Assembly (NCBI GenBank): GCA_021827865.1
Contig: JAKAUC010000009.1
Location: 186,001 to 250,000, forward strand
Length of the DNA: 64,000 nucleotides
Reading direction: 5' to 3'
From: an archaeon
Lineage (GTDB): Archaea > Thermoproteota > Nitrososphaeria > Nitrososphaerales > Gagatemarchaeaceae
The notes beneath the pieces were generated by a model that saw only the letters and a program-made list of their open reading frames with translations, was not told the DNA's origin and searched no databases. Position numbers and translations under genes: made by a program. This document shows, one piece after another, positions 29,848-42,160 of the stretch (positions within the stretch are counted from its first letter, which is position 1; the number at the start of each line of letters is the position of its first letter).

Positions 29848-30273
29848 CTAGGAGACTCGCCTGACGATGCCGTCGAAGCCACTGTCGAAGCTGACGAGGC
29901 TGTCGATCCCGGCCTGGCGCATGAGCGCGACCGTGGTCTGGTCGGTGAAGCTGAGGCCTCGGGACCGCTTCGACCGGAAGGCGGCCCAGGCGTCCGAGAA
30001 GGCGGCGGCGTCGACCCTGAGCAGCCGGGCGAGCGGCTTGACCGAGCTTTCCGGGGAGCCGAGTATGAGGCTCCCCGCCCTGACCGCGAGGTCGGGGTTG
30101 CCGGTGCGCGAGAGGGCGGTCGTGACGACCTCGTCGAACACGTAGTCCGACGTATACGGGACCCCCAGCTCCCCCCGCCTTAGCCTGTCGGCCAACTCTT
30201 CCGCGGCCGCGTGGTCCCTGTCCTTGACGTTGGCGAAGGCGACGAACACCCCGGTATCGACGAAGGCGCTCAT
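29848..30273 (-). CDS. vapC: VapC-type PIN-domain toxin
   Basis: A 141-residue PIN ribonuclease. The first acidic residue is in FVDTGVFVAFA, a glutamate is in VFDEVVTTALSRTG, and LSFTDQTTVALMRQAG supplies the third Asp; SLVSFDSGFDGIV closes the fold. Start at ATG 30273, overlapping the antitoxin stop in an ATGA; the longer open frame to 30327 lacks such coupling. The toxin at 37310-37738 has the same YTSDYVxDEVxTTALSRT and FDSGFDG blocks, so the two modules are paralogous. Confidence 0.9.
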   Translation of the reverse strand: MSAFVDTGVFVAFANVKDRDHAAAEELADRLRRGELGVPYTSDYVFDEVVTTALSRTGNPDLAVRAGSLILGSPESSVKPLARLLRVDAAAFSDAWAAFRSKRSRGLSFTDQTTVALMRQAGIDSLVSFDSGFDGIVRRVS

Positions 30274-30566
30274 CGGAGGCCCCTCCGCTTCGGCTCGCCG
30301 TACAGGACCCCGTCGATGTCCTCCCACCTCGTCTGGACCCCCCAGTCTCCGCAGAGGGAGCGCATCCGACCGAACTCGTCGTCAGCGAGAGGAGCCCAGG
30401 CGCCGAAGCGGGTCCCGATCTCGTCCCCCTTTGCGAGGGCGTCGTCTATCAGGGCAGAGAGTATGTCCTGCTGCGCCATCTTCTCGCCCAGCTTGAACGT
30501 GATCAGCGCCTGCAGCCGGTCGAGCTTCTTCTTCGCGTCTTCCCCCAGCTTCACTGACGTGGGCAA
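30270..30566 (-). CDS. vapB: VapB-type antitoxin
   Basis: A 98-residue protein before the PIN toxin. The first part (MPTSVKLGEDAKKKLDRL) looks like a short beta strand plus helix of a ribbon-helix-helix DNA-binding domain, followed by MAQQDILSALIDDALAKGD; the C-terminal 40 residues (TRFGAWAPL, WGVQTRWEDID) should wrap the toxin. The pair at 37719-37994 has the same plan. An inverted repeat lies immediately upstream, probably the operator at which it represses its own operon. Confidence 0.8.
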   Translation of the reverse strand: MPTSVKLGEDAKKKLDRLQALITFKLGEKMAQQDILSALIDDALAKGDEIGTRFGAWAPLADDEFGRMRSLCGDWGVQTRWEDIDGVLYGEPKRRGLR

Positions 30567-30570
30567 GGCA

Positions 30571-30594
30571 ATTAGGTAGAATAGTATTCCTAAT
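30571..30594 (-). promoter_or_regulatory. inverted repeat operator/promoter of vapBC
   Basis: ATTAGG and CCTAAT arms (6 bases) face each other across 12 AT-rich bases, ending five bases before the antitoxin start. The repeat covers the TATA-like region, so antitoxin binding would block transcription. Seen directly; function inferred. Confidence 0.5.
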
Positions 30595-30599
30595 ATCTT

Positions 30600-30977
30600 T
30601 TTCTACTGGCGAGGGCCGGCCCCGTCCGACCATGTGCGTCCAGCCGCCCGTCCGCGCGGTCCGGGAGGGAGATGGTGACGCCCTAAGCCCGACGCGCGGG
30701 ACGCCCGCTCATGGCCCGAGCGCGAACGCACGCGCCCGAGGCTCCTCGTTCATGCCGGGACGAAATCAGAGGCGGCGCCCTCATCCCGGAGGGGCGGGAG
30801 CTTCACCGAGGTCACACCCCGGCTCCCCGAAGGGACGAATTGGCGTCCTTCGGCGGGACCATGCCGGGTAGAGCGGGTTCGCGCATGACGTGGAGGACGG
30901 GGCCTTGATGAAGACGGCGCCCAGAGACTGCCCCGCCTAGACACGACGGTCACAGCCTGCGTCCTCCGCGGGGAGGA
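30600..30977. other. gap with no recognisable gene
   Basis: High-GC stretch with several overlapping open frames on both strands, all of them Arg/Pro/Gly-rich and without family patterns. It lies between the vapBC promoter and the 3' fragment of mazF. I see no RNA gene. Confidence 0.4.
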
Positions 30978-31216
30978 CTATGCCGTCTCGACGGTGGAGC
31001 CGGCAGGGCGGTCCGGAGAAGCCGCCGCGCTTTCCGCCGCCAGCTTCAGCCCGAGCACTTCTGCCAGACCAATCCTCGCCTCCATGAGCTTTTCCTGAGA
31101 GACCTTCCCGAATGGCTTGACCACCAGGGTCTTTTCGAGGGTGAAGACCTTGTCGTACTTGATCCTGCTCTTCAGAGGGAGCCGTCCCCTCACCATCCCT
31201 GACTGGTCCTCGACAG
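30978..31216 (-). pseudogene. mazF: mazF toxin, 3' fragment (split by the IS607 element)
   Basis: The minus-strand frame reads AVEDQSGMVRGRLPLKSRIK and then YDKVFTLEKTLVVKPFGKVS, followed by QEKLMEARIGLAEVLGL, the C-terminal half of a MazF/PemK ribonuclease (the SRIK..KIFTL..L...GKLS pattern). The frame is open upstream to about 31216 and then loses similarity where the IS607-type element begins. The missing N-terminal half, in the same orientation, is at 33549-33739 beyond the element. The last 25 residues are Ala/Pro-rich and unlike the family. Confidence 0.75.
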
Positions 31217-31269
31217 CTGTCGCGTCCGTTCATTGTCTTTATATACATAATAGTCAATATTATCATTGA

Positions 31270-31884
31270 TTGAAGTACTACAGGACCGGCTACGTTGCGA
31301 GGACATTGCGGGTGTCGCCGATAACCATCTTCAGGTGGATACATCAGGGGAGAATCAAGGCCGAGATGACCCCTGCAAAGAGATGGCTCATCCCTGAATC
31401 AGAGCTGAACAGGCTGATGGGGGTAGAGCCCTCCGAAGTGAAGAAAGTGATAATCTACGCGAGAGTCTCTTCGAGCGAACAGAAGGCTCACTTGGCAAGC
31501 CAGGCCAGGCGGTTGGAGAAATATGCCGATGAGAGGGGGTACGAGGTCGTCAAAGTATACGAAGAGCTCGCGTCTGGTCTGAACGAGAACAGGAGGAAGC
31601 TCGAATCTGCGTATAGGATGCTGAAAGAGAAGAAGGCAGACCTTATCCTCGTCGAGTTCAGTGACAGGTTGTCGAGGTTCGGGTTCAACTATCTGGCGAG
31701 GCTGGCTGAGAGCTATGACGCTTCCGTGGAGGTTGTCAATGGCGACGCGAAGAAGGACGCCATGCAAGAGTTGGTTGAGGACATGATTTCAATCGTTACG
31801 ATATTCTCGGCGAGGCTGTACGGGCTGAGGAGCCAGAAGTTCAGGCAGGTCACAAGGGTGATGAAGAGTGCAGTACACGGTTAG
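31270..31884 (+). CDS. tnpA: IS607-family serine recombinase (TnpA)
   Basis: A 204-residue transposase of the IS607 serine recombinase type. Residues 1-50 are a MerR-like helix-turn-helix (YVARTLRVSPITIFRWIHQG, then KRWLIPESELNRL); the resolvase catalytic domain follows with VIIYARVSSSEQKAHLASQ, where the first Ser of the SSS run is the likely nucleophile, YEELASGLNENR, and LVEFSDRLSRFGF with the conserved Arg pair. The C-terminus ends at about 204 residues, normal for the family. Start is TTG at 31270. It carries out a circular-intermediate excision and integration with little target sequence demand. Confidence 0.93.
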   Translation: MKYYRTGYVARTLRVSPITIFRWIHQGRIKAEMTPAKRWLIPESELNRLMGVEPSEVKKVIIYARVSSSEQKAHLASQARRLEKYADERGYEVVKVYEELASGLNENRRKLESAYRMLKEKKADLILVEFSDRLSRFGFNYLARLAESYDASVEVVNGDAKKDAMQELVEDMISIVTIFSARLYGLRSQKFRQVTRVMKSAVHG

Positions 31885-33547
31885 GGCGTTCGTAGAAGGA
31901 AGTGACGCGAGGATCGACGAAATCTGTAGGGTGTTCTCCTCGATGGAGCGGGCCGCATACAACCTCCTACGAGAGGACGCGAAGGAGGGTCAGGTCAAGG
32001 CGGTCCTCCGTGACAGGTATGGGGTGACTAACGCCAGGTGGTGCCAGTCAGCGACCAACCAGGCCAAGGCTGCGATGGAGGCACAGAAGGAGGGGTTACG
32101 GTACCGGATAGAGCAGTGCACAGCGAAGGCAAGGAACGAGAGGGAGAAAATGAAACACGTCTCCAACCCGCTCAAAGTCCGTGGGTGCCTGATGAAGGTC
32201 AAGAAGTACATGGCGAGGGCAGACGAGTTGAGGAGCCAGCTGAGAGACGGGTCTTACCCAACGGCCGTATTCGGCTCAGCGAGGCTGCTGCGACAGCTCG
32301 CCGTCGCTAGAGGCGAAAAGTACTACGACCTTAGGAGAGAATGGAAGGAGGCGAGGTCGAACCACCTCTTTTCAGTCGGGCAGGCAAACCAGCGCGGGAA
32401 CGGGAACACAAGATTGTCGTATGACGACGATGGCAAATTCCACCTCGAGTTCAGGAACTGGCACCAAGAGGATTTCATGACGACGTTCCACGTCCCTGAG
32501 CATACAGGAGACATAATCAAGGATGTGGTCGCTAGAGCATCGTCCGTCAGGCTCGGCAAGAAGGGGGGAGGGCTGCTGCTAGGTGGCCGGAAGGGGCTCC
32601 CATACTCCGTGAGGCTTATCCGCTCCAAAAAGGGGTACCAGGTCTTCGTCTCCTTCGAGCTTGAGGCACCTGCCGTCGTAGAATGGACGGGCCGGATTGC
32701 GGGAGTAGACATCAACCCAGAGGGGCTAGCTTGCACGGCGGTTTCGGAGGACGGGAACCTCGTGGCGACCAGATTCTTGCGGGACAGCAGGCTCATCACT
32801 GCGTCGAAGAACAAGCGGAAGTGGGTGCTCGAGAATCTCGTCAACAGGATGCTGAGGTGGGCGAGGGACACCCACGGGTGCGACGCCATCGCCCTGGAGG
32901 AGCTGAAGTTCAAGGGCGCCTACGACTCCTCTCCAAGGACGAACTTCAAGCTCTCCAACTTCATGAAGAGGAAGATGCTCGAGAGGATCAGGCTTAGCGC
33001 CTTGAAGATGAGAATGCTGACAGTGGGCGTGGACCCCGCATACACGAGCATGGTCGCAACTGCGAAGTATGGTAGACGGTTCGGGGGCTTCAACAGGCAC
33101 CAGCTCGCGGCGTTCGTAATCGGGAGGAGGGCGCTCGGGTACGGGGAGGCGCCCGTGATGGACTGCCTCCCGAAGACTGGGAGGGAGAGGGCGATGTGGA
33201 ATCACTCGATCAGGCATTACGGTCATCAGCCCGCAATCCGAACTCTGACCCGGCGCGAACCTTTGGAACGGAAGAACGCCGGGGATGCCAACGGAGGAGG
33301 GCTGGCGACGAAGCTGCTCACAGCACCCCCCGCTAACACCCCATCTCAGATGGGGTCAAGCCACTCTACTTCGAAAGAAGGCGTCGTTGCAACTGAAGCC
33401 ATCAGCCGGCAAGCGGGTAGGGCCAGTCCAAATCCCCCCACCAGGGAGGGAGGCTGGGCTAGAGGGCGTAGAGCGAACCCTCCTGATACCACCAGGCATC
33501 AGTCAGCAGTCATCTTCCATGCTAAGGAAGATAATGCAATTAGCTAG
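31868..33547 (+). CDS. tnpB: TnpB RNA-guided nuclease-like protein (IS607-associated)
   Basis: A 559-residue TnpB. The N-terminal helical/beta part ends near residue 270; the RuvC-like core has IAGVDINPEGLACTA (first Asp), AIALEELKFKGAY (Glu), and TVGVDPAYTSMVATAKYG followed by RHQLAAFVIGRRALG. There are no CxxC pairs between YTS and the final helix, so the usual zinc ribbon is missing, and the DxNAA block is HQLAA. After residue about 440 the frame continues 120 residues through low-complexity, hairpin-rich sequence that probably encodes the guide RNA. Start is GTG at 31868, overlapping tnpA. Active TnpB proteins cut DNA matching the RNA guide at the donor site and so help keep the element. 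Confidence 0.88.
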   Translation: MQYTVRAFVEGSDARIDEICRVFSSMERAAYNLLREDAKEGQVKAVLRDRYGVTNARWCQSATNQAKAAMEAQKEGLRYRIEQCTAKARNEREKMKHVSNPLKVRGCLMKVKKYMARADELRSQLRDGSYPTAVFGSARLLRQLAVARGEKYYDLRREWKEARSNHLFSVGQANQRGNGNTRLSYDDDGKFHLEFRNWHQEDFMTTFHVPEHTGDIIKDVVARASSVRLGKKGGGLLLGGRKGLPYSVRLIRSKKGYQVFVSFELEAPAVVEWTGRIAGVDINPEGLACTAVSEDGNLVATRFLRDSRLITASKNKRKWVLENLVNRMLRWARDTHGCDAIALEELKFKGAYDSSPRTNFKLSNFMKRKMLERIRLSALKMRMLTVGVDPAYTSMVATAKYGRRFGGFNRHQLAAFVIGRRALGYGEAPVMDCLPKTGRERAMWNHSIRHYGHQPAIRTLTRREPLERKNAGDANGGGLATKLLTAPPANTPSQMGSSHSTSKEGVVATEAISRQAGRASPNPPTREGGWARGRRANPPDTTRHQSAVIFHAKEDNAIS

Positions 33548-33548
33548 C
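33240..33548 (+). ncRNA. putative omega (re)RNA overlapping the 3' end of tnpB
   Basis: In TnpB elements a guide RNA scaffold overlaps the tnpB end and runs to the right end of the element. Here a perfect 8-base hairpin (ACCCCATC, loop TCA, GATGGGGT) lies at 33338-33356, a G/C stem region at about 33440-33465, and a second hairpin (CTGAT..ATCAG) at 33483-33502, all inside a coding tail that looks non-protein-like. The guide would then be the first 15-20 bases of mazF beyond the right end. Boundaries are estimates. Confidence 0.5.
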
Positions 33549-33739
33549 TCTAGCAGGACAGAGTTGCGGCGGTTCGAGAGCTTCGATGTGATTCCGCAGC
33601 AGACGAAGCCTCTGGAGGTCCGGTTGTGCTCGGATTCAGACAGCACCAACAACGGGCGCCTCCTCTTCCGCGAGAGGTCGGTGAAAGGAAACGGAACCAG
33701 GAGCACTCCTCCAGGTTCAAACTCTGTCCCAGATTTCAT
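33549..33739 (-). pseudogene. mazF: mazF toxin, 5' fragment (split by the IS607 element)
   Basis: The frame opens at 33739 with MKSGTEFEPGGVLLVPFPFT, then DLSRKRRRPLLVLSESE and CCGITSKLSNRRNSVLLEL, a textbook MazF/PemK N-terminus (GxVxxxxFPFTD...RPxLVxS...ITS). Similarity stops near 33549; the frame then reads a few element codons and ends at 33503. Together with the fragment at 30978-31216 it would rebuild one complete toxin of about 125-130 residues. Its start overlaps the end of the AbrB-type antitoxin gene, the standard TA arrangement. Confidence 0.82.
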
Positions 33740-33983
33740 CCTCGGGGTTCTCCCATAGGGCGGCCGCGGCCTTCTCGGACAGGCGGACCATGTGGTCGAA
33801 CTCGCCCTCCATCAGCTTGGCTAGGTCCGCTGACTTCTCCATCAGGACCTTGTTTCCCTTCACCGCGAGCAGCAGCTTCTCTCCCTCCTTGATGTCGAGC
33901 TTCCGTCTGATGTCGATGGGGATCACGACCTGTCCCTTCTCTGACACCGTGACCGACACCATCTGGAGCCCCTTTTCTGTCAT
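33717..33983 (-). CDS. AbrB/SpoVT-type antitoxin (MazE-like)
   Basis: An 88-residue protein with a swapped-hairpin DNA-binding domain: VTVSEKGQVVIPIDIRRKL then DIKEGEKLLLAVKGNKVLM, followed by an acidic helical tail ending ENPEDEIWDRV that would bind the toxin. It overlaps the start of the split mazF by 23 bases. Because the toxin is broken, this is now an orphan antitoxin. MTEKGLQ at 33983 or the internal ATG at 33962 may start it. An inverted repeat lies just upstream. Confidence 0.85.
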   Translation of the reverse strand: MTEKGLQMVSVTVSEKGQVVIPIDIRRKLDIKEGEKLLLAVKGNKVLMEKSADLAKLMEGEFDHMVRLSEKAAAALWENPEDEIWDRV

Positions 33984-33991
33984 GCTGGCTG

Positions 33992-34007
33992 GTAAGAAAA
34001 TGCTTAC
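33992..34007 (-). promoter_or_regulatory. inverted repeat operator upstream of the AbrB antitoxin
   Basis: GTAAG and CTTAC arms around a six-base centre, beside CTTAAGTAAG on the minus strand, which resembles a TATA box. It lies 9-25 bases before the antitoxin start and likely serves as its autoregulatory site. Confidence 0.45.
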
Positions 34008-34400
34008 TTAAGAGCGCGTCATTCCGCTGTCTCCTTCACCGGGGAGGTCAACGATGGAACCGACGACCCTCTGGTCGACCGTGAGGAGCCTTAGGCCGTT
34101 CTCCACCGAGGACGCATAGGGGATGTTGTCTATCATGTCCTGGCGGCCCAGGTCCCTGAGCTCGTTCGCCCTGCTGAACGAACCCGCCCCTTCCTCCGAC
34201 CGCTCGTAGGTGCCTCCGTCGATGACGCTCCTAAGCCCGTCTTCGAACCTCGCCTTGTCGAACGTGGAGCTCCTCTTGAACTTCGCCACGTCGTAGAGCG
34301 GCTCCAAGACGCTGAACTTGGAATAGTACACCTGCACCTTCGTGCGGGCAAGGTTCTCGAGGCCCTTCGCGACCTCGCACTTGGCGTCGATGCCGATCGC
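34008..34400 (-). pseudogene. PIN-domain toxin, 5'-truncated
   Basis: The frame encodes the middle and end of a PIN domain: IDAKCEVAKGLENLARTKVQ, YYSKFSVLEPLYDVAKFK with the Glu, and ELRDLGRQDMIDNIPYASSV then LRLLTVDQRVV with the late Asp residues. A TAG stands at 34401-34403 and no start codon or first-Asp motif (xxVDTNxL) lies in frame, so the N-terminal 20-30 residues are missing. Probably a dead vapC; its own antitoxin is not recognisable. Confidence 0.6.
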
Positions 34401-34463
34401 CTAAGCCGCGTAGCATAAGAATCGCCCAGGCGTGTCACAGATGCTACGAAAGTCGAAGGCAAG

Positions 34464-34865
34464 CTAGAATATTCGCCTCGTCCCTTCGATGGCGTCGAAG
34501 TCGGAGTCGTTCGAATACACTTCCTTCGTCCCCGACCTCTCCATCTGGGCGGCGATGACGTAGTCGTCCCACGCCCTCCAGTCCCCTCCGTCGCCCATCT
34601 TCTCCCGGGCCCTGACGAAGTCGGCGAACGTCGTCTCGACCTTGGACATGCTCGGCATCGACCTGAGGAGTGAAAGGAACGCGGGGATCCGGTCGGCCTT
34701 CTTCTTCCACTTCATGTAGCCGCACACCTGGGCTATCGCCAGGGTGGAGGTGACGGCCGCCTCCCCGTCCTGTATGGCCTTGAGGATGGACCTCGCCCTC
34801 TCGCCGTAGGCGGGGTCGTCGGAAAGGTGGTACACGAACACGTTCGAGTCTACGAACCTCGTCAG
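34464..34865 (-). CDS. vapC: VapC-type PIN-domain toxin (CTG start likely)
   Basis: A 133-residue PIN ribonuclease. FVDSNVFVYHLSDDP has the first Asp, TSTLAIAQVCGYM the Glu region, WRAWDDYVIAAQMERSG the next acidic pair and VYSNDSDFDAIEG the end. The first ATG or GTG in frame would leave out the first catalytic Asp, so translation very likely begins at CTG 34863-34865, which overlaps the antitoxin TGA as CTGA. The pair is one operon with the AbrB antitoxin before it. Confidence 0.85.
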   Translation of the reverse strand: MTRFVDSNVFVYHLSDDPAYGERARSILKAIQDGEAAVTSTLAIAQVCGYMKWKKKADRIPAFLSLLRSMPSMSKVETTFADFVRAREKMGDGGDWRAWDDYVIAAQMERSGTKEVYSNDSDFDAIEGTRRIF

Positions 34866-35086
34866 GCTTCGTCCCTCCCGAGCGCACCCTCGACCTCTTC
34901 GAGGTCCACCTTGGAACGGCCGATGATCCCTCTCACCTCGTCCACGTCGACGGAAAGGTCCGGCCTGAGGACGATGGCGCCGTTCTCGAGCTCCACTTCA
35001 AAGACGTCCCCCTCGTGGAGGGCCATGGCCTCTCTCACCTGAGCGGGCAGCGTCAGCCTCCCCTTTTCCCTGATAGCCACCTTCAT
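34862..35086 (-). CDS. vapB: AbrB-type antitoxin
   Basis: A 74-residue protein: KVAIREKGRLTLPAQVREAM and HEGDVFEVELENGAIVLRPD make the AbrB-like swapped hairpin; a short acidic tail (VDVDEVRGIIGRSKVDLEEV) would block the toxin. Start at ATG 35086; upstream codons are not family-like. It lies below repeated TGGGAA motifs. Confidence 0.85.
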   Translation of the reverse strand: MKVAIREKGRLTLPAQVREAMALHEGDVFEVELENGAIVLRPDLSVDVDEVRGIIGRSKVDLEEVEGALGRDEA

Positions 35087-35121
35087 CTGTTCATTCCCAC
35101 TGCTCGTTGGGAAGAGCAAAT

Positions 35122-35140
35122 TGGGATAAAAATATTCCCA
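35122..35140 (-). promoter_or_regulatory. inverted repeat operator/promoter of the vapBC pair
   Basis: TGGGA and TCCCA arms flank nine AT-rich bases (AATATTTTT type) that also serve as TATA region. A further GTGGGAAT lies just before the antitoxin ATG, so there may be a third half site. Confidence 0.5.
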
Positions 35141-35189
35141 CCGCTGCGCCAGCGACCGACGGGAGAGGCCGGGGCGAAAGCGTAGATCT

Positions 35190-35384
35190 TCAGCCACGAA
35201 GCTCCGTCGTTGCGGTGAAGGTGCGCCTGGCCACCAGGAGTATCCCGCGCTCTTCTTCCCGCACCTCGAGGGTCGCGCCTTCCTCCAGCCCCAGGCCCCT
35301 CCTTATGTTCGAGGGGATGGTGACCTGCCCCTTGCGTTTGACCCCACGATCGGCGACTTTGGTATGACGTTCTGAATGTTCGAT
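35190..35384 (-). pseudogene. AbrB-type antitoxin fragment without start codon
   Basis: Between a TAA and a TGA the frame reads VKRKGQVTIPSNIRRGLGLE and then EGATLEVREEERGILLVARR, a nearly full AbrB domain. There is no ATG, GTG or TTG in frame before it (only ATC, GTC and sense codons), and no toxin follows. It is either the remnant of a lost module or uses a rare start codon. Similar in sequence to the antitoxin at 39334-39564. Confidence 0.6.
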
Positions 35385-35439
35385 TTAAGGACTGTCTGGC
35401 ACGGGCCCACCGTCAGGCCTGCCTTCATCCTGTTGACGC

Positions 35440-35892
35440 TCATCGAAAGTCCATCGAAGTCATGAACCTGAACTCGGGTCTCCGCTCTCGGACGAACCTG
35501 AGGAGCCCCTCGTCGGTCGCGAAGTCGTCTTCCGACACCAAGGCGTCGCAATGCTCCATTGCCGACGCTATTATCAGGCAGTCTACGAAGTCGTTGTGGA
35601 AGCGCCTCAGACCGATCGAAGCCGCCGCGACCTGCTCCCCGTAGGCCGACGCCTTTTCCACTGTGTCGTCCGCCATTATGCTCCTGACCCCCGCCATCAG
35701 CTTCTCCTCCGGCAGCTTGCCGGCCTTCACCAGCTTGGCGCCCTTTGCGAGGAGCTCGAAGAGAGAGATGTCCGAAACCCAGGTCTCGTGGCCGGCGTCC
35801 TGGGCGGCGGCGAGGGTGTGGTCGAGCCGCTCTCCGACCCCCACGCCGACCGCAGGGAGCATGTAGGTCGTATCCAGGAGGACGCGAGACAA
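35440..35892 (-). CDS. vapC: VapC-type PIN-domain toxin
   Basis: A 150-residue PIN protein. VLLDTTYMLPAVGVGV contains the first Asp, SDISLFELLAKGAKL the Glu, RRFHNDFVDCLIIASAMEH the third and fourth acids, and DALVSEDDFATDEG the last. It is longer than standard VapC by an insert near residue 25. ATG at 35892; the antitoxin stop is four bases upstream. The pair is one operon. Confidence 0.85.
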   Translation of the reverse strand: MSRVLLDTTYMLPAVGVGVGERLDHTLAAAQDAGHETWVSDISLFELLAKGAKLVKAGKLPEEKLMAGVRSIMADDTVEKASAYGEQVAAASIGLRRFHNDFVDCLIIASAMEHCDALVSEDDFATDEGLLRFVRERRPEFRFMTSMDFR

Positions 35893-35896
35893 GGGG

Positions 35897-36157
35897 TCAC
35901 GCCCGCCTCTTGCGGCCGTCCTCGAGCCTGCGCGAAAGCTCCCTTCGGTCCTCCCGCAGCTCCTCCAACGTGACGGTCGTCACGGGCTCCATCTCCATCA
36001 GCTCCCTGACCTTGGGGATGGGCTCCACGACGAGGCGGCGCCCCTCCACCCTGAAGCGGACCTTCATCCCAGGCTTGAGGCCGAGGGCATCCCTGATGCT
36101 CTTTGGAGGGTAGAGCTCTTCTTTCGACCCGACGACGCTTTCGGATTGGGTTGACAT
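35897..36157 (-). CDS. vapB: AbrB-like antitoxin
   Basis: An 86-residue protein. GSKEELYPPKSIRDALGLKP and GMKVRFRVEGRRLVVEPI form an AbrB-like hairpin with a divergent first strand, then an acidic/basic helix (TLEELREDRRELSRRLEDG) for toxin binding. Leaderless transcription is likely, because a TATA-like box lies about 26 bases before the ATG. Confidence 0.8.
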   Translation of the reverse strand: MSTQSESVVGSKEELYPPKSIRDALGLKPGMKVRFRVEGRRLVVEPIPKVRELMEMEPVTTVTLEELREDRRELSRRLEDGRKRRA

Positions 36158-36182
36158 GTCCGGATTCAGTCTATCTTCCGGG

Positions 36183-36190
36183 TATTTAAT
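36183..36190 (-). promoter_or_regulatory. TATA-like promoter element
   Basis: ATTAAATAC on the minus strand, about 26 bases before the ATG of the antitoxin at 36157, in otherwise GC-rich sequence. It stands out clearly. Confidence 0.5.
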
Positions 36191-36302
36191 CGCTTGCCGG
36201 ACCGAGTGGCCTGCTCCGGCCGACGACGGGCCGGCGGCCGCGAAAGGTCGAGCGCCAGAGTTTAGCTCTCCCCCCTCGCCCTTCCCCGGGCGTGGACAAC
36301 CC

Positions 36303-36331
36303 TTAAGTATACACTATTGAATATCGTATAC
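36303..36331 (+). promoter_or_regulatory. promoter/operator with twin GTATAC sites
   Basis: TTAAGTATAC is a TATA-like element about 25 bases before the antitoxin ATG at 36333. GTATAC palindromes at 36307-36312 and 36326-36331 are 19 bases apart centre to centre; the first overlaps the TATA box and the second touches the start codon. A likely autoregulatory operator. Confidence 0.5.
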
Positions 36332-36332
36332 C

Positions 36333-36647
36333 ATGTCAGAAGTGCTCTCAGTGAAGGTCGAGAAGGAGAAGCTGAGGCAGCTCGAGGAGATAGCGAAAGA
36401 AGAGCAGAGCGACCGGTCGACGGTGGCCAGGCGTCTGTTGGACGCGGGGATACGCGGGTGGAAGGTGGACAGGGCCGCTGAGAGGTTCCAGAGGGGGAAG
36501 GTGTCTCTCTGGAAGGCGTCGCAGGAGTCCGGGCTGTCGCTGAGGGAGTTCATGGACGTCCTCGAGGAGAGGAAAGCCCCGACGGTCGGGGTCACGGTGG
36601 CCGAGCTGGAGAAGGAAGTCGGGGCCCTGGCCGGCGAAACCGGGTGA
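36333..36647 (+). CDS. UPF0175-family antitoxin
   Basis: A 104-residue protein. A ribbon-helix-helix start (LSVKVEKEKLRQLEEIAKEE, then SDRSTVARRLLDAGIRGW) is followed by the UPF0175-type helix-turn-helix VDRAAERFQRGKVSLWKASQ and SGLSLREFMDVLEER. Proteins of this kind usually precede DUF3368 PIN-like genes, exactly as here. It is the only TA module on the plus strand in this island. Overlap with the next gene is four bases (GTGA). Confidence 0.85.
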   Translation: MSEVLSVKVEKEKLRQLEEIAKEEQSDRSTVARRLLDAGIRGWKVDRAAERFQRGKVSLWKASQESGLSLREFMDVLEERKAPTVGVTVAELEKEVGALAGETG

Positions 36648-37177
36648 AGACGAAGTTCGTCTTCGACGCTACCCCTCTGATACACCTGGCCAAGGCGGGG
36701 CTGGCCCCACTCCTCGTCGGCCTCGCGGGGGACAAGTTCACGGTCCCGGCTGTGGTGCGGGAGGTCGTGGGCAGGGTGGAGGAAGAAAGAGAGTTCGAGC
36801 ATCCAGATGCCGGCATCGTTTCTTCCCTCATCGACCGAGGGGTCATTCAGGTGAGAAGTCCCACCCCCAAGGACTCGGAAGTGGTGGCCCGCCTGCACAG
36901 GGACGTGCATGCCGGGGAGGCCGAGGTGTTGGCATTGGCCAAGGCGCTGGAAGCCATCGCAGTCATCGACGACCGGGCCGCCAGGTCGGCCGCGAAGATC
37001 CAGGGGGTGAGGCTCGAAGGGACCTACGGGGTCGTCTTCCGCGCGGTCAAGGAGGGCTCGATCACGGCTCGCGAGGCTGAAGAGGACCTCGACAGGCTGG
37101 TGTCGTCCGGGTGGAGGTGCGACGCGGAGCTATACGCTGCGCTGTTAAGGTCTCTCAAGAGGGTCGCGGTCAAGTGA
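36644..37177 (+). CDS. DUF3368 PIN-like toxin
   Basis: A 177-residue PIN-superfamily protein. FVFDATPLIHLAKAG holds the first Asp, VPAVVREVVGR the Glu, HAGEAEVLALAKALEAIAVI and DDRAARSAAKIQGV the following acids, and RLEGTYGVVFRAVKEGSI is the diagnostic DUF3368 block. An extra C-terminal helix pair of about 40 residues follows. Start is GTG at 36644. It would cut RNA when not held by the UPF0175-type partner. Confidence 0.87.
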   Translation: MKTKFVFDATPLIHLAKAGLAPLLVGLAGDKFTVPAVVREVVGRVEEEREFEHPDAGIVSSLIDRGVIQVRSPTPKDSEVVARLHRDVHAGEAEVLALAKALEAIAVIDDRAARSAAKIQGVRLEGTYGVVFRAVKEGSITAREAEEDLDRLVSSGWRCDAELYAALLRSLKRVAVK

Positions 37178-37309
37178 GGTCTCGCCACCGAAGTCCTTCA
37201 CGAGGTTCGACGGCCGGACCTGTCCGCTTCCCCTCCCCTCGGGAACGATGACGGAACCCAGCCTAGCCAGGAATCAGCGCTTTGATGCCCTGCCCCTCTC
37301 TCGAAGCCA

Positions 37310-37738
37310 TCAGTGAATCCGGGTAGTCAGCCCGTCGAACCCTGAGTCGAAGCTCATGATCCCGCCGAGCCCGCGCCTCTCTATGTGGGTCAGCGAGACG
37401 CAGTCTGTGAAGCTCATCGGCTTGCTTCCAAGCTTCTGGAACCGCTTCCATGAGCTTTGGAACTCCGCGGGTCCTGTGTAGAGCTTCTCGATCCTCGGCG
37501 AATCCAATGCCAGCCGTCCTACGTTGACGGCAACGCGGAAGTCCCTGGTGCGGGACAGGGCCGTGGTGACCGCCTCGTCTACGACGTAATCAGAGGTGTA
37601 GACGGCCCCGAACTCCCCTTTCAATGCCCTCTCGACGAGCTGGGACGCCCTTTTGTGGTTGGTGTCCCGGCTGTTTCTTGCGGCGACGAATATCCCGGTG
37701 TCCAGGAAGATCGCCAAGTCAACTCTTCCCGTAGACAT
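37310..37738 (-). CDS. vapC: VapC-type PIN-domain toxin
   Basis: A 142-residue PIN ribonuclease with IFLDTGIFVAARNSRD, YTSDYVVDEAVTTALSRTR, MSFTDCVSLTHIERRG and IMSFDSGFDGLTTR. The four acidic positions are in place. It is a close paralogue of the toxin at 29848-30273. ATG at 37738 gives a 20-base overlap with the antitoxin; TTG at 37717 just before the first strand is another possible start. Confidence 0.9.
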   Translation of the reverse strand: MSTGRVDLAIFLDTGIFVAARNSRDTNHKRASQLVERALKGEFGAVYTSDYVVDEAVTTALSRTRDFRVAVNVGRLALDSPRIEKLYTGPAEFQSSWKRFQKLGSKPMSFTDCVSLTHIERRGLGGIMSFDSGFDGLTTRIH

Positions 37739-37994
37739 ACTCGTCCACGCGCTCCGAAGCGTCGTCGACCCCCCAGTCTTCGGGCCGGTGGAGGAGCGTC
37801 CAGGCAGGGTCCTTTTCCAGGGGCGGGAGCCTCTTGAGCCGCTTCACTATCTCCTCTCTGTTCTCCATCGAGTAGTCCACCATGAGTCCCAGAGCTTCCT
37901 GGAAGGTCACCTTCACCCCTTCTTCGAGTATCAGGGACGCCACGAAGCGCTCTACTTCATCCTTTCTTCTTCTGTCCAGCTTGACGGTCAGGGA
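37719..37994 (-). CDS. vapB: VapB-type antitoxin
   Basis: A 91-residue protein starting MSLTVKLDRRRKDEVERFV at ATG 37994, a ribbon-helix-helix-like start, then KVTFQEALGLMVDYSMENRE and a C-terminal part (DPAWTLLHRPEDWGVDDASE) that resembles the WGVQTRWEDID tail of the antitoxin at 30270. A TATA-like box 27 bases upstream suggests a leaderless message. Confidence 0.8.
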   Translation of the reverse strand, partial: SLTVKLDRRRKDEVERFVASLILEEGVKVTFQEALGLMVDYSMENREEIVKRLKRLPPLEKDPAWTLLHRPEDWGVDDASERVDEYVYGKS

Positions 37995-38020
37995 CATGAC
38001 TCGCCTGAGGCTTCTTCTAC

Positions 38021-38042
38021 TATTATACTTTGCTACTAGTAG
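38021..38042 (-). promoter_or_regulatory. TATA box and CTACTAGTAG palindrome before vapBC
   Basis: AAGTATAATA at 38021-38030 (minus) lies 27 bases before the antitoxin start, and the perfect palindrome CTACTAGTAG at 38033-38042 adjoins it on the upstream side, a probable BRE-overlapping operator. Confidence 0.5.
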
Positions 38043-38090
38043 CGATACTATGTGACATGAGATGGGCACTTGAAACTGGGAGCGATGCAA

Positions 38091-38187
38091 GCTTGTCCAC
38101 CGCCGTGACCTCGCATCCCTCCTCGGGCAGCCTGTCGACGACGTGGCTCCCGATGGACCCTGCCCCGCCGGTCACCAGCGCTCCCAT
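38091..38187 (-). pseudogene. truncated nucleotide-sugar epimerase (5' fragment)
   Basis: The frame starts at ATG 38187, one base after the nucleotidyltransferase stop, with MGALVTGGAGSIGSHVVDRL and PEEGCEVTAVDKLASL, the first 36 residues of an extended SDR. Similarity ends near 38090, and the promoter of the vapBC module begins there; the open frame goes on to 38023 with unrelated residues. The remaining 270 residues are absent, so the vapBC module has replaced the rest of the gene. Confidence 0.75.
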
Positions 38188-38188
38188 G

Positions 38189-38917
38189 CTAACGACCCCC
38201 CTTCGCCCCTTCATGCCTCCTTGCCGGGAGCCCGCCAACGAACGACCGGAACTCCTCCAGGCTCCTCTCTGACCCTATCTCGTAGAACCTCTCCGCCACC
38301 TCGAAGGCCCGGAGCTGCCCGTCCTTCACCAGCCCGCCATAGAAAGTCGGCTCGTCGCAGACCCGCCCCCTTTCCACCCTGTCGAGCGCCCCCCTCTTCA
38401 GGGCGGTCACGCCGTAGTTGATCCACTCCATCCCGGGGGCGCCGTTCACCTTGTCGTAGGCGGCCACGAAGCCGTCCTTCACCACCACGTCGCTCCTCCC
38501 GAACCTCCCCTCGTTCCTGTACACCGCCATCAGCCCAAGCTCCTCCTGTCCCTCGAGGGCGTCCATCATCCCCCGGTAGTCCAGCGTTAGGTACGCGTCC
38601 CCATAGGTCACGAAGAACTCCTCCCTGAGCATCCGCTCCGCCATCTTCAGCGCCCCCACGGGCCCCAGCAGCCTCTCCCCCTCGGAGGAGTAGCGTATCC
38701 TCACGCCGAAGCCCGACCCGTCCCCGAAGTGCCCGCGTATCGCCTCCCCCTTGTACCCCACGCAGAGCACTATGTCGTCGACCCCGTGGCTCGCCAGGAG
38801 CTCCAGCTCGTACTCGAGGAACGGCCTCCCGTTGACCGGGGCCATCGCCTTGGGCATCCTGTCGGTGAGGGGCCTGAGCCTTGTCCCCAGCCCTCCGGCG
38901 AGTATCGCCGCCTGCAT
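38189..38917 (-). CDS. sugar-1-phosphate nucleotidyltransferase (HddC/GmhC-like)
   Basis: A 242-residue nucleotidyltransferase. AAILAGGLGTRLRPLTDRMP is the nucleotide loop, KAMAPVNGRPFLEYELELL the lysine block, VGYKGEAIRGHFGDGSGFG follows, and FVTYGDAYLTLDY has the Mg-binding Asp. The length and YEIGSERSLEEFRSFV ending fit HddC-type GDP- or ADP-heptose pyrophosphorylases. In line with the phosphatase at 40781 and the remains of the kinase and isomerase at 42260-42798, it probably activated a heptose phosphate. It is intact. Confidence 0.85.
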   Translation of the reverse strand: MQAAILAGGLGTRLRPLTDRMPKAMAPVNGRPFLEYELELLASHGVDDIVLCVGYKGEAIRGHFGDGSGFGVRIRYSSEGERLLGPVGALKMAERMLREEFFVTYGDAYLTLDYRGMMDALEGQEELGLMAVYRNEGRFGRSDVVVKDGFVAAYDKVNGAPGMEWINYGVTALKRGALDRVERGRVCDEPTFYGGLVKDGQLRAFEVAERFYEIGSERSLEEFRSFVGGLPARRHEGAKGGR

Positions 38918-38941
38918 CTGTGCTTCACCGCCTCCCTTCGG

Positions 38942-39337
38942 CTAGAACCACTTTGACCTGGCCCCGAGCTCGCGAAAGTGCGGGTCGTCGGTGACCACGT
39001 ACTCGGCTTCGCCGGCGACGACGAATGATGCGATCAGCGCGTCGGCCACAGGGGCGCCGCGGCTCGACAGCATCAGCCTGCCCGCCTCCAAAGCGTGCCC
39101 TTCGTCGATAGGGACCACCCTCATCCCCCGCTCCTTGAACTGGCCTATGCGGGCCCTGGCGGCGGACTCCCCCATCCTCCCCCCGGCGACCTTCATGAAC
39201 TCGCTCAGCACGACGGAGGGGGCGATCAGGCGCGACGCCAGCTCGTTCCGGAAGAGGGCCCTGACGCGGTCCCTGGACTCCTCGTCCGCAGGGAACTCCA
39301 GCTCCAGGAGCAGGCGCGTGTCTGCGACGGCGGTCAT
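38942..39337 (-). CDS. vapC: VapC-type PIN-domain toxin
   Basis: A 131-residue PIN protein: AVADTRLLLELEFPADEE (first Asp), APSVVLSEFMKVAGGRMG (Glu), GAPVADALIASFVVAGEAEY (third Asp) and VVTDDPHFRELG at the end. It overlaps the antitoxin stop by four bases. Normal length. Confidence 0.9.
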   Translation of the reverse strand: MTAVADTRLLLELEFPADEESRDRVRALFRNELASRLIAPSVVLSEFMKVAGGRMGESAARARIGQFKERGMRVVPIDEGHALEAGRLMLSSRGAPVADALIASFVVAGEAEYVVTDDPHFRELGARSKWF

Positions 39338-39564
39338 CTCCAGTTTCTCCTCAGCTCGTCGAGCTCGCGCATCACTCTGTCATGCTCGGCCTTCCCCACC
39401 GGCTTCCCTGCGTCTATCGGAGACCGGGCTTCCAGCCGGATCCCCCCATCGGATACCTTCACCTCAAGCACAGAGCCTTCTTCGAGGCCGAGCTCCTCCC
39501 TCATCTCGGCCGGGATGGTGACCTGCCCCTTGTGTTTGACTCTTACCAGGGATGACTTACCCAT
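39334..39564 (-). CDS. vapB: AbrB-type antitoxin
   Basis: A 76-residue AbrB-domain protein: SSLVRVKHKGQVTIPAEMRE and LGLEEGSVLEVKVSDGGIRL, then a helical tail KAEHDRVMRELDELRRNW. A CTTAAGTT box about 25 bases upstream suggests leaderless transcription. Confidence 0.88.
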   Translation of the reverse strand: MGKSSLVRVKHKGQVTIPAEMREELGLEEGSVLEVKVSDGGIRLEARSPIDAGKPVGKAEHDRVMRELDELRRNWR

Positions 39565-39721
39565 AGTCTGACTTTCTTAGAGTCCAACTTAAGCCTTTGC
39601 GCCCTGAGGAGCGACCCGCGGGGAGGGAAGGGTGAAAGCGTCTCCGGCGCGGTCTCTTTGAGGTCGGCCCCGTCCCCAGCCACTCCGCCCGCGAGTCTTG
39701 CCGCCTGCACCTTCTCAGCCC

Positions 39722-40147
39722 CTACGGGACCCGCAGTTCCTCAGGCGGCTGCCGTCTGAGGCCCGGGACTTTCTCGAAGACCGCGTCGGTGGAGATGATG
39801 GTGTGGTCCGGGACAGAGGGAGAAAGGGCGGTCGCCGCGTAGAGCGCGTCGAAGACGGAGGAGATCTTGTAGGTCTCGGCCAGATGCAGGGCGGAGAGAC
39901 ATGTTTCGGCGTCCGGGTTAAGGAACTTCAGGTTCTTCATTGTGGTTACGCGGGCGAAGTCGACCAGGATCGTGTGCAAGGGCGCGTTCCCCGAGAACAC
40001 GTAGTACATCTCCTGGAGGGTGGCCGCGGAGCAGGCGACCTCCCCCAGCCTCCCGGCCTCGACCGCGCCGATCACACGCTCTGCCGTTGGTTTGAGCCAG
40101 TCGTCCTTCTTGAGATAAGCTATGAGCATGTCCGACTCGAGCAGCAT
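39722..40147 (-). CDS. vapC: PIN-domain toxin
   Basis: A 141-residue PIN-fold protein. LLESDMLIAYLKKDDWLKPT has the first Asp, SAATLQEMYYVFSGN the Glu, ETYKISSVFDALYAATALS the third Asp and IISTDAVFEKVPGL the last. It is divergent in that the first motif is ESDML rather than VDTNxL. The antitoxin ends six bases upstream. Confidence 0.82.
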   Translation of the reverse strand: MLLESDMLIAYLKKDDWLKPTAERVIGAVEAGRLGEVACSAATLQEMYYVFSGNAPLHTILVDFARVTTMKNLKFLNPDAETCLSALHLAETYKISSVFDALYAATALSPSVPDHTIISTDAVFEKVPGLRRQPPEELRVP

Positions 40148-40153
40148 CGGGTT

Positions 40154-40384
40154 TCACCCTGTACGTCTGCGGCGCCGCTCCGACGCGTCCTCCCTGGCCC
40201 TCGCCTCGGCCCTCGCCTTCAGGGCCCCGACGCCTTCCTTGACATCGATGGGGATTGGCTTCCGGGGGACAGGGATGAGGAGGAGGGCCTCGCCCTGCCT
40301 CACCATGACGGCTTCGTCGGCGTCGAATTCGATGTCCCTGGGGACGTATACCCGCCTATGCGCGTCAATCTTTACCACAGACAT
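40154..40384 (-). CDS. vapB: AbrB-like antitoxin
   Basis: A 76-residue protein. VVKIDAHRRVYVPRDIEFDA and DEAVMVRQGEALLLIPVPRK form a reduced AbrB hairpin; the tail is very basic and helical (KARAEARAREDASERRRRR). CATTAAGTAG, a TATA-like sequence, lies about 45 bases upstream. Confidence 0.75.
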   Translation of the reverse strand: MSVVKIDAHRRVYVPRDIEFDADEAVMVRQGEALLLIPVPRKPIPIDVKEGVGALKARAEARAREDASERRRRRTG

Positions 40385-40634
40385 ATGTTTTTCCCACTGA
40401 TAGCGGTCTTGTGGTTCTACTTAATGGTTTGTGGTATGCGCTGGAGTCGGAGCAGCTGGCTTCGTGATCCAGAACCTGTCGCGCCCGTCGCGGAGACGAG
40501 GGCCACCCCTGGGGTTCCCCCATCGCCATTTCCACCCGGCTCGTCAGGCTCGCGGACGAACCTGTCGCGCTCTGGGCGCCCCGCGACTTCCGGCTAAGCC
40601 GAGGTTGGGACCTGCACTTCGTTCCTGGGGGGAT

Positions 40635-40784
40635 TCACTTCTGGCTCCCCTTCTTGATTATCTCCACCGAGTTGGCGAGCATGGTGTAGTCCACCCCCGA
40701 GCTGTTGAGGGCTTCCTCCACCTTCTTTCGGACGCTCTTCTCGTCCCTGTTCTCGCAGTCGACCCACACCTCGATGCGCTTCAA
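40635..40784 (-). CDS. 49-residue protein coupled to the HAD phosphatase
   Basis: A small frame starting at TTG 40784 that overlaps the phosphatase stop as TTGA, a strong sign of translational coupling. The product begins MKRIEVWVDCENRDEKSVRK, then KVEEALNSSGVDYTMLANS and ends KKGSQK: two beta strands with a helix, like a half ferredoxin fold. I do not recognise a family. It may be a partner of the phosphatase or a truncated domain. Confidence 0.55.
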   Translation of the reverse strand: MKRIEVWVDCENRDEKSVRKKVEEALNSSGVDYTMLANSVEIIKKGSQK

Positions 40785-41509
40785 CGCGAGGGCATCCCCG
40801 ATGCCATCTTCTTAACGATATCAGCCGCCTCGGCGACGTTGCGCGCGACGAATTCAGGCTGGGCGCCCAGCTCGTCCATCTTGCTGCTCAGGGTCCCGTT
40901 GAGGGTCGCCACCAGGATGGTCTTGCAACCGGCCCTCTTCCCCGCCAGCACGTCGTACAGGCCGTCCCCGACCATCACCGAGCGTCCCAGGTCCAGCCCG
41001 AGGTCGCGGGCGGCGTCGAGGAGCATCCCGGGCTTCGGCTTCCTGCAGGCGCAGTCGGCCTTGTACGCCGCGACCCTCGCCTGGGGGTGGTGGAAGCAGT
41101 AGTACTCGGCGTCGAGGCTGACCCCCTCGGCGGCCAGGAGCCTCCGCATCTTCGCCTGTATCTTCCTGAACGCTGCCATGGTCATGTGCTTCTTGGCCAT
41201 GCCCGGCTGGTTCGAGACCAGGACCAGCTTGTAGCCGGCGGCCCTCATGGTCCTCAGCGCCTGGCCTATCCCCTCGGCCAGGACGAACTGCCTCGGGGTG
41301 AAGGGGCTGTCGACGATCCCGGGGTCGGGGTAGTAGACCATCTCGTTGACCACCCCGTCGCGGTCAATCAGCGCCGCTCTGGCCACGTTTTCCGCCTCGT
41401 TCGGGCGGACATGACCCCGGGCCTCCTTTTCGGCATTCATCCTGGAGCCATCGACGGACCCTTTCGGCCGGTCCGCGAAATCGAGGGCTTCGGTCTTCAT
41501 CGGGGTCAA
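40781..41509 (-). CDS. gmhB: HAD-IIIA phosphatase (GmhB/HisB-N-like)
   Basis: A HAD hydrolase related to D-glycero-D-manno-heptose 1,7-bisphosphate phosphatase. LIDRDGVVNEMVYYPDPG carries the nucleophile Asp, LVSNQPGMAKKHMTMAAF is motif II, YYCFHHPQARVAAYKADCAC provides a Cys/His zinc loop typical of GmhB, and RKPKPGML plus VMVGDGLYDVLAGKRAG complete the site. The frame to 41509 gives about 45 residues before the catalytic strand, more than the family needs; GTG at 41383 is a plausible true start. It would make heptose 1-phosphate for the nucleotidyltransferase at 38189. Confidence 0.85.
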   Translation of the reverse strand: MTPMKTEALDFADRPKGSVDGSRMNAEKEARGHVRPNEAENVARAALIDRDGVVNEMVYYPDPGIVDSPFTPRQFVLAEGIGQALRTMRAAGYKLVLVSNQPGMAKKHMTMAAFRKIQAKMRRLLAAEGVSLDAEYYCFHHPQARVAAYKADCACRKPKPGMLLDAARDLGLDLGRSVMVGDGLYDVLAGKRAGCKTILVATLNGTLSSKMDELGAQPEFVARNVAEAADIVKKMASGMPSR

Positions 41510-41537
41510 AGCCGACTCTCTTCCAGGAGCATGTCCA

Positions 41538-41915
41538 TCAAAGCGGAGTTACGCCCAACCGCTGGGCATCTCGCTTTAGGCCCGCGTCGAAGGTCAGGAT
41601 AGAGGCGCCCAACCTCTTCGCGTGGGAGAGGATCAGGTAGTCGTTGTATCTGGAGAACGACGAGGCCTCCCGCGTGGCGAACAGGATGTCGTCCTGGGAG
41701 TCCGAGCTGTATTTCGCCTTCTCTGACAGCAGGTATTCTTCCGCCTTGTCCCGGGCGAAGGAGAAGTCTGCTTTCAGGCCCCGGAGCGCCCACAGGTACT
41801 CGTGGAGGACGATCGCCGGCAGGACCCAGCCGTCGGCTTCCTCCAGCTTGCTCCTCGCCTGCTCGTGCTGGTCGCTGTCCTCATAGGTGTCGAAGACCAG
41901 GACGTTGGTGTCCAC
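41538..41915 (-). CDS. vapC: VapC-type PIN-domain toxin
   Basis: A 125-residue PIN ribonuclease beginning at GTG 41915 (TAGTG overlap with the antitoxin stop): MDTNVLVFDTYEDSDQHEQA, LPAIVLHEYLWALRGL, SFSRYNDYLILSHAKRLGAS and ILTFDAGLKRDAQ. The acidic residues are all present. Confidence 0.9.
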   Translation of the reverse strand: MDTNVLVFDTYEDSDQHEQARSKLEEADGWVLPAIVLHEYLWALRGLKADFSFARDKAEEYLLSEKAKYSSDSQDDILFATREASSFSRYNDYLILSHAKRLGASILTFDAGLKRDAQRLGVTPL

Positions 41916-42160
41916 TACCGCAGCGATTCTCTCATCCCCTCCGCGATGGCATCTTCTATCTCCTTCAGGCCTATCCTCCTCCCCAGCCTGGCGACCCGCC
42001 TCGGCCCCCTCCTGGGCGGCATGAGTCTGATGGTGCCGGAGCCTTCGTCGTAGTCGACCAGGAGGATGTCCCCTTTTTCGACGGCAGCCCTGCTGCGGAC
42101 GTCTGCCGGGATGGTGACCTGGAAGTTGCGCGTCACCTTCGTTGTAGGCATAATTGGCAT
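41915..42160 (-). CDS. vapB: AbrB-type antitoxin
   Basis: An 81-residue AbrB-domain protein starting at ATG 42160: PTTKVTRNFQVTIPADVRSR and EKGDILLVDYDEGSGTIRLM, then a basic Arg/Pro segment and a helix (LKEIEDAIAEGMRESL) for the toxin. An imperfect palindrome covers the start codon. Confidence 0.87.
   Translation of the reverse strand: MPIMPTTKVTRNFQVTIPADVRSRAAVEKGDILLVDYDEGSGTIRLMPPRRGPRRVARLGRRIGLKEIEDAIAEGMRESLR

What the first reader, a model, noticed from the sequence alone, without database searches (positions are those of the whole stretch)
30978..33739. An IS607-type element splits a mazF toxin gene
The N-terminal half of a MazF protein (ending NSVLLEL) lies at 33549-33739 and the C-terminal half (EDQSGMVRG onward) at 30978-31216, same strand and frame logic, with the serine recombinase and tnpB between. 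This pinpoints the element ends without any repeats, gives the pre-insertion sequence, and leaves the AbrB antitoxin as an orphan. Excision would restore a live toxin beside its antitoxin, so element loss could be linked to TA function.
Basis: seen in the sequence. Interest (0 to 1): 0.75.

Follow-up and report, generated by a model that had tools for sequence, protein, structure and literature searches.

The report
IS607 transposon splits archaeal mazF gene
In an uncultured archaeon, a small mobile element carrying an RNA-guided protein has inserted cleanly into the middle of a toxin gene and left the antitoxin gene intact; intact copies of the toxin in sister species show exactly where, and the insertion point (TC instead of the usual GG) is the unusual part.

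Summary
The pieces flanking tnpA-tnpB match residues 1-63 and 64-139 of one 139-aa MazF/PemK protein that is intact, beside the same AbrB antitoxin, in a genome of the same genus (81% and 86% identity, no gap, no overlap). The insert is an IS607-family element (serine recombinase TnpA plus TnpB, about 2.34 kb). Nine related right ends and four related left ends fix its ends at a shared TC (31207-31208, 33549-33550). Studied IS607 elements cross over at GG, so TC is a modest new variant. The last 250 bp is a covarying structured RNA (candidate omegaRNA) whose guide would read into mazF. The element sits in a toxin-antitoxin island (6 of the genome's 15 PIN genes within 12 kb). A related TnpB-only element splits a vapC in another genome, but most copies lie outside toxins, so a preference for toxins is not shown. 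Excision restoring the gene fits the geometry, but excision, TnpB activity and toxicity are untested; TnpB's third RuvC Asp is replaced in all copies. Overall: a well-supported, mostly ordinary insertion with an interesting crossover site.

The parts
33551..33739 (-). N-terminal half of mazF/pemK (63 codons)
   Evidence: PF02452 positions 2-52; residues 1-63 of intact L003 homologue, 81%
30978..31208 (-). C-terminal half of mazF/pemK (76 codons and stop)
   Evidence: PF02452 positions 68-109; residues 64-139 of intact L003 homologue, 86%
33717..33983 (-). AbrB/MazE-type antitoxin, intact, overlaps the mazF start
   Evidence: PF04014 39.3 bits; same gene beside intact mazF in L003 and L004
31207..31208 (+). 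TC crossover dinucleotide at the left junction (flank GACTGGTC; element interior starts at 31209)
   Evidence: left-end comparison with L028, L029, L035, L063; homologue L003
33549..33550 (+). TC crossover dinucleotide at the right junction (element ends GCTAGCTC; flank starts at 33551)
   Evidence: 10 of 10 right ends end in CTC followed by a pyrimidine
31209..31222 (+). left-end motif CTCGACAGCTGTCG, related to TTGCAAGCAGCTGCC of relatives; possible TnpA site
   Evidence: binding is inference
31270..31884 (+). tnpA, IS607-family serine recombinase, 204 aa, intact
   Evidence: NF033518 191 bits (cut-off 110); HTH_17 then Resolvase domain
31868..33547 (+). tnpB, RNA-guided nuclease family, 559-aa frame, overlaps the end of tnpA; its C-terminal part overlaps the candidate omegaRNA
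   Evidence: NF040570 38.5 bits, below its cut-off of 100; relatives aligned
33300..33550 (+). candidate omegaRNA/reRNA scaffold
   Evidence: 9 right ends: 40 consensus pairs, 15 with changes on both sides
33551..33570 (+). inferred guide segment; lies in mazF, antisense to its mRNA
   Evidence: inference from the right-end position and IS607 TnpB biology (PMC10711439)

Best explanation
An IS607-family element (TnpA + TnpB, about 2.34 kb) integrated by serine-recombinase strand exchange at a TC dinucleotide (context GGTC|Y) inside a MazF/PemK toxin gene, in the direction opposite to the toxin. Shown: the split, the identity of both halves as one gene, the element ends, the intact antitoxin. 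Inferred: the toxin is inactive; precise excision would leave the target unchanged; the right-end RNA carries a guide that matches the target gene, so an active TnpB would act on uninterrupted copies and favour keeping the element. The insertion persists because losing a toxin while keeping its antitoxin costs the host little.
For: Both halves map without gap or overlap onto one intact homologue that sits beside the same antitoxin in L003. TnpA passes the NCBI IS607 model. The left junction follows RGTC in 5 of 5 left ends; 10 of 10 right ends finish in CTC then a pyrimidine; TC is the only dinucleotide common to all. Intact mazF (L003) reads GACTGGTC|CAGCAGG at the site. Right-end RNA has 15 covarying pairs. 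Neither mazF half has a stop or frameshift relative to L003, so the insertion is probably not old. tnpA and tnpB are both unbroken here, unlike in the genus relatives seen.
Against: No empty site from the same species was available. The homologue is only about 90% identical in DNA, so the exact pre-insertion base at one position is inferred. TnpB lacks a clear third RuvC Asp (Asn in the window and six of seven aligned relatives, Gln in one), and the structure model is too poor there to judge (pLDDT below 50 from residue 336 on). The TnpB family matches are weak.
Confidence: 0.9

Rival explanations
1. The element acts as a reversible switch: TnpA excises it in some cells and turns the toxin-antitoxin pair back on.
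For: tnpA is intact, the ends are intact, and the halves add up to the full protein length with nothing lost; IS607 transposition leaves no duplication, hence no scar on removal (PMC6188088).
Against: No empty site seen; no other genome keeps this element at this site. N-half dN/dS of 1.07 on 16 changes gives no sign of selection on the toxin.
Confidence: 0.05
2. This element lineage prefers toxin genes or toxin-antitoxin islands as targets.
For: Two of ten right ends lie in toxin genes (mazF here; vapC in G020/L030 with intact homologue L080). The window copy sits in an island with 6 of the genome's 15 PIN genes.
Against: The window copy is the one that prompted the question; of the other nine only one is in a toxin. 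Others lie at a nucleotidyltransferase 3' end (L029), at the end of pyrE (L061) and before a large gene (L062). The target motif is only RGTC|Y, found 291 times on one strand of 64 kb.
Confidence: 0.1
3. The two mazF pieces are separate small genes or old relics unrelated to the element.
For: Each has an open frame of its own.
Against: Each half matches only part of one family and both point to the same intact gene, adjoining exactly at the element's ends.
Confidence: 0.01

Closest known systems
IS607 family (IS607, IS1535, ISC1926)
   Same: TnpA with N-terminal helix-turn-helix and serine-recombinase domain, followed by tnpB; no terminal inverted repeats, no target duplication, two-base crossover (PMC6188088, PMC4058570)
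   Different: Crossover dinucleotide TC in context RGTC|Y here; GG in the studied members (PMC6188088, PMC4058570)
IS607 TnpB with reRNA (ISXfa1)
   Same: structured RNA at the right end reaching the boundary, guide reading into the flank (PMC10711439)
   Different: TnpB frame here is 559 aa, shows no zinc ribbon and has Asn at the third RuvC acidic position; activity unknown
MazEF/PemIK toxin-antitoxin
   Same: PF02452 toxin downstream of and overlapping an AbrB-type antitoxin
   Different: toxin gene is split, antitoxin alone remains
Cas12m2
   Same: a TnpB relative with a non-canonical RuvC triad that binds without cutting (PMC10442227)
   Different: different substitutions, and a CRISPR effector; only an analogy

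Membership tests
IS607 family | serine recombinase with N-terminal DNA-binding domain | tested here: met
   NF033518 191.4 bits (cut-off 110); HTH_17 residues 3-50, Resolvase 60-193
IS607 family | no target-site duplication beyond a shared dinucleotide | tested here: met
   junctions against the intact homologue and relatives share only TC
IS607 family | GG crossover dinucleotide, as in the studied members | tested here: not met
   TC in 5 of 5 left and 10 of 10 right ends; GG is a property of the studied members, and papers define the family by its transposase, so membership by transposase stands
IS607 family | transposition through a circular intermediate | not testable with these tools
   needs experiment
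TnpB RNA-guided nuclease | RuvC D-E-D triad | tested here: inconclusive
   first D and E kept; third position Asn in the window and six relatives, Gln in one; a rearranged site is not excluded (model too poor)
TnpB RNA-guided nuclease | structured right-end RNA reaching the element boundary | tested here: met
   40 pairs, 15 covarying, 9 sequences; expression not tested
MazF/PemK toxin | full-length PF02452 domain | tested here: not met
   present only as two pieces in the window; full length in L003 and L004

The most novel reading that the evidence does not exclude
A lineage of archaeal IS607 elements has switched its crossover dinucleotide from GG to TC, and its TnpB has a non-canonical RuvC site, so it might bind without cutting and silence uninterrupted copies of the gene it sits in.
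Probability: 0.12. Interest if true: 0.65.

Novelty: new variant of a known kind. Interest (0 to 1): 0.35.

Why it matters
It gives a base-level definition of an archaeal IS607-type element with a TC crossover, an intact reference for its target, and a candidate guide RNA whose target is known. That makes crossover specificity and TnpB action in this lineage directly testable. The toxin-antitoxin angle mainly illustrates why such an insertion is tolerated.

Tried and rejected
Rejected: separate genes for the two halves; GG or CC as the crossover (not shared by left and right ends); CT (does not fit the window's left end). An Rfam search of the region gave nothing above a family threshold. A PDB sequence search with TnpB gave nothing meaningful. 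The AlphaFold model of TnpB was too poor in the RuvC part to place catalytic residues, so no fold search was run. A first reading of the G020 left end as a clean TC junction was dropped: the intact vapC (L080) shows about 36 codons missing there. No search was made with a pattern built from both flanks, because that would join flanks inside a toxin gene. Literature searches for IS607 or TnpB elements in toxin-antitoxin genes found no direct precedent in the held library, which misses most subscription journals.

Full report
Observation. The window piece 33551-33739 (-) matches PF02452 positions 2-52 and the piece 30978-31208 (-) matches positions 68-109. Searched one by one across 31 genomes of the genus, both halves hit the same intact gene in G010 and in G008. 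In G010 (L003) the gene encodes 139 aa beside the same 88-aa AbrB antitoxin; the window halves match residues 1-63 and 64-139 with no gap or overlap. The intact protein covers the whole PF02452 profile. The mazF is the only PemK match in the window's genome.

Ends. L003 reads GACTGGTC then CAGCAGG on the plus strand. The window's left flank ends GACTGGTC and its right flank begins TAGCAGG. Left ends of relatives (L028, L035, L029, L063) also follow RGTC and begin with a related motif. Right ends of nine copies, plus a tenth in L094 read on its minus strand, finish in CTC followed by a pyrimidine. TC is the only dinucleotide common to all left and right ends, so I assign it as the crossover: 31207-31208 and 33549-33550.

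Element. tnpA passes the NCBI IS607 model. tnpB is a weak but consistent TnpB match, with relatives or fragments in 13 other genomes of 400 in the order. The window has the only copy seen with both genes unbroken, and most relatives lack tnpA. The right 250 bp fold into a consensus with 40 pairs, 15 showing changes on both sides, which supports a structured omegaRNA/reRNA. By analogy with ISXfa1 (PMC10711439) its guide would read from about 33551 into mazF. This last step is inference.

Comparison with known elements. IS607, IS1535 and ISC1926 carry GG at their termini and GG at the unoccupied target (PMC6188088; PMC4058570 for IS607). TC here is a departure. Only five left ends were available and no transposition was observed, so I call it a variant, not a new kind.

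TnpB activity. The first Asp and the Glu of RuvC are kept; the third Asp position is Asn in the window and six aligned relatives and Gln in a distant one. Cas12m2 shows that a non-canonical triad can go with binding without cutting (PMC10442227), but that is analogy. The AlphaFold model is unusable there.

Toxin-antitoxin context. Six of the genome's 15 PIN-domain genes lie in window 29872-41918, with AbrB- and UPF0175-type partners. In G020 (L030) a TnpB-only relative splits a vapC whose intact homologue is in G008 (L080), with about 36 codons missing beside the left end. Other copies are elsewhere: a nucleotidyltransferase 3' end, next to the pyrE stop, upstream of a large gene, or in unannotated sequence. 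Tolerance of toxin loss, plus an island rich in toxins, is enough to explain the pattern.

Age and selection. No stop or frameshift separates either half from L003. dN/dS is 1.07 for the N-half, 0.33 for the C-half and 0.48 for the antitoxin, from few changes; too few to conclude more than that the insertion is not ancient.

Host. Named relatives of the element lie in metagenome-assembled genomes called Thaumarchaeota archaeon REEA66 and archaeon YP1.bin46, so the window is from an uncultured archaeon of that group.

Verdict. Observation confirmed; an ordinary kind of event, well defined, with a TC crossover as the main novelty. Excision, toxin revival and guide action remain inferences.

Noticed in passing
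window 29872-41918: Toxin-antitoxin island: 6 of the genome's 15 PIN-domain genes in 12 kb, with AbrB and UPF0175 partners.
   Followed up: partly
L030 3000-5250: TnpB-only IS607 relative splits a vapC gene in G020 (REEA66); the AbrB antitoxin upstream is intact and about 36 vapC codons are missing at the left end.
   Followed up: partly
window 32700-33160: TnpB lineage lacks a zinc ribbon and has Asn (once Gln) at the third RuvC acidic position in all aligned copies.
   Followed up: partly
window 34008-34337: Reading frame next to the antitoxin that looks like a remnant of a broken gene within the island.
   Followed up: no
window 31238-31245: TTTATATA about 30 bp before the tnpA start, archaeal TATA-box-like.
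   Followed up: no
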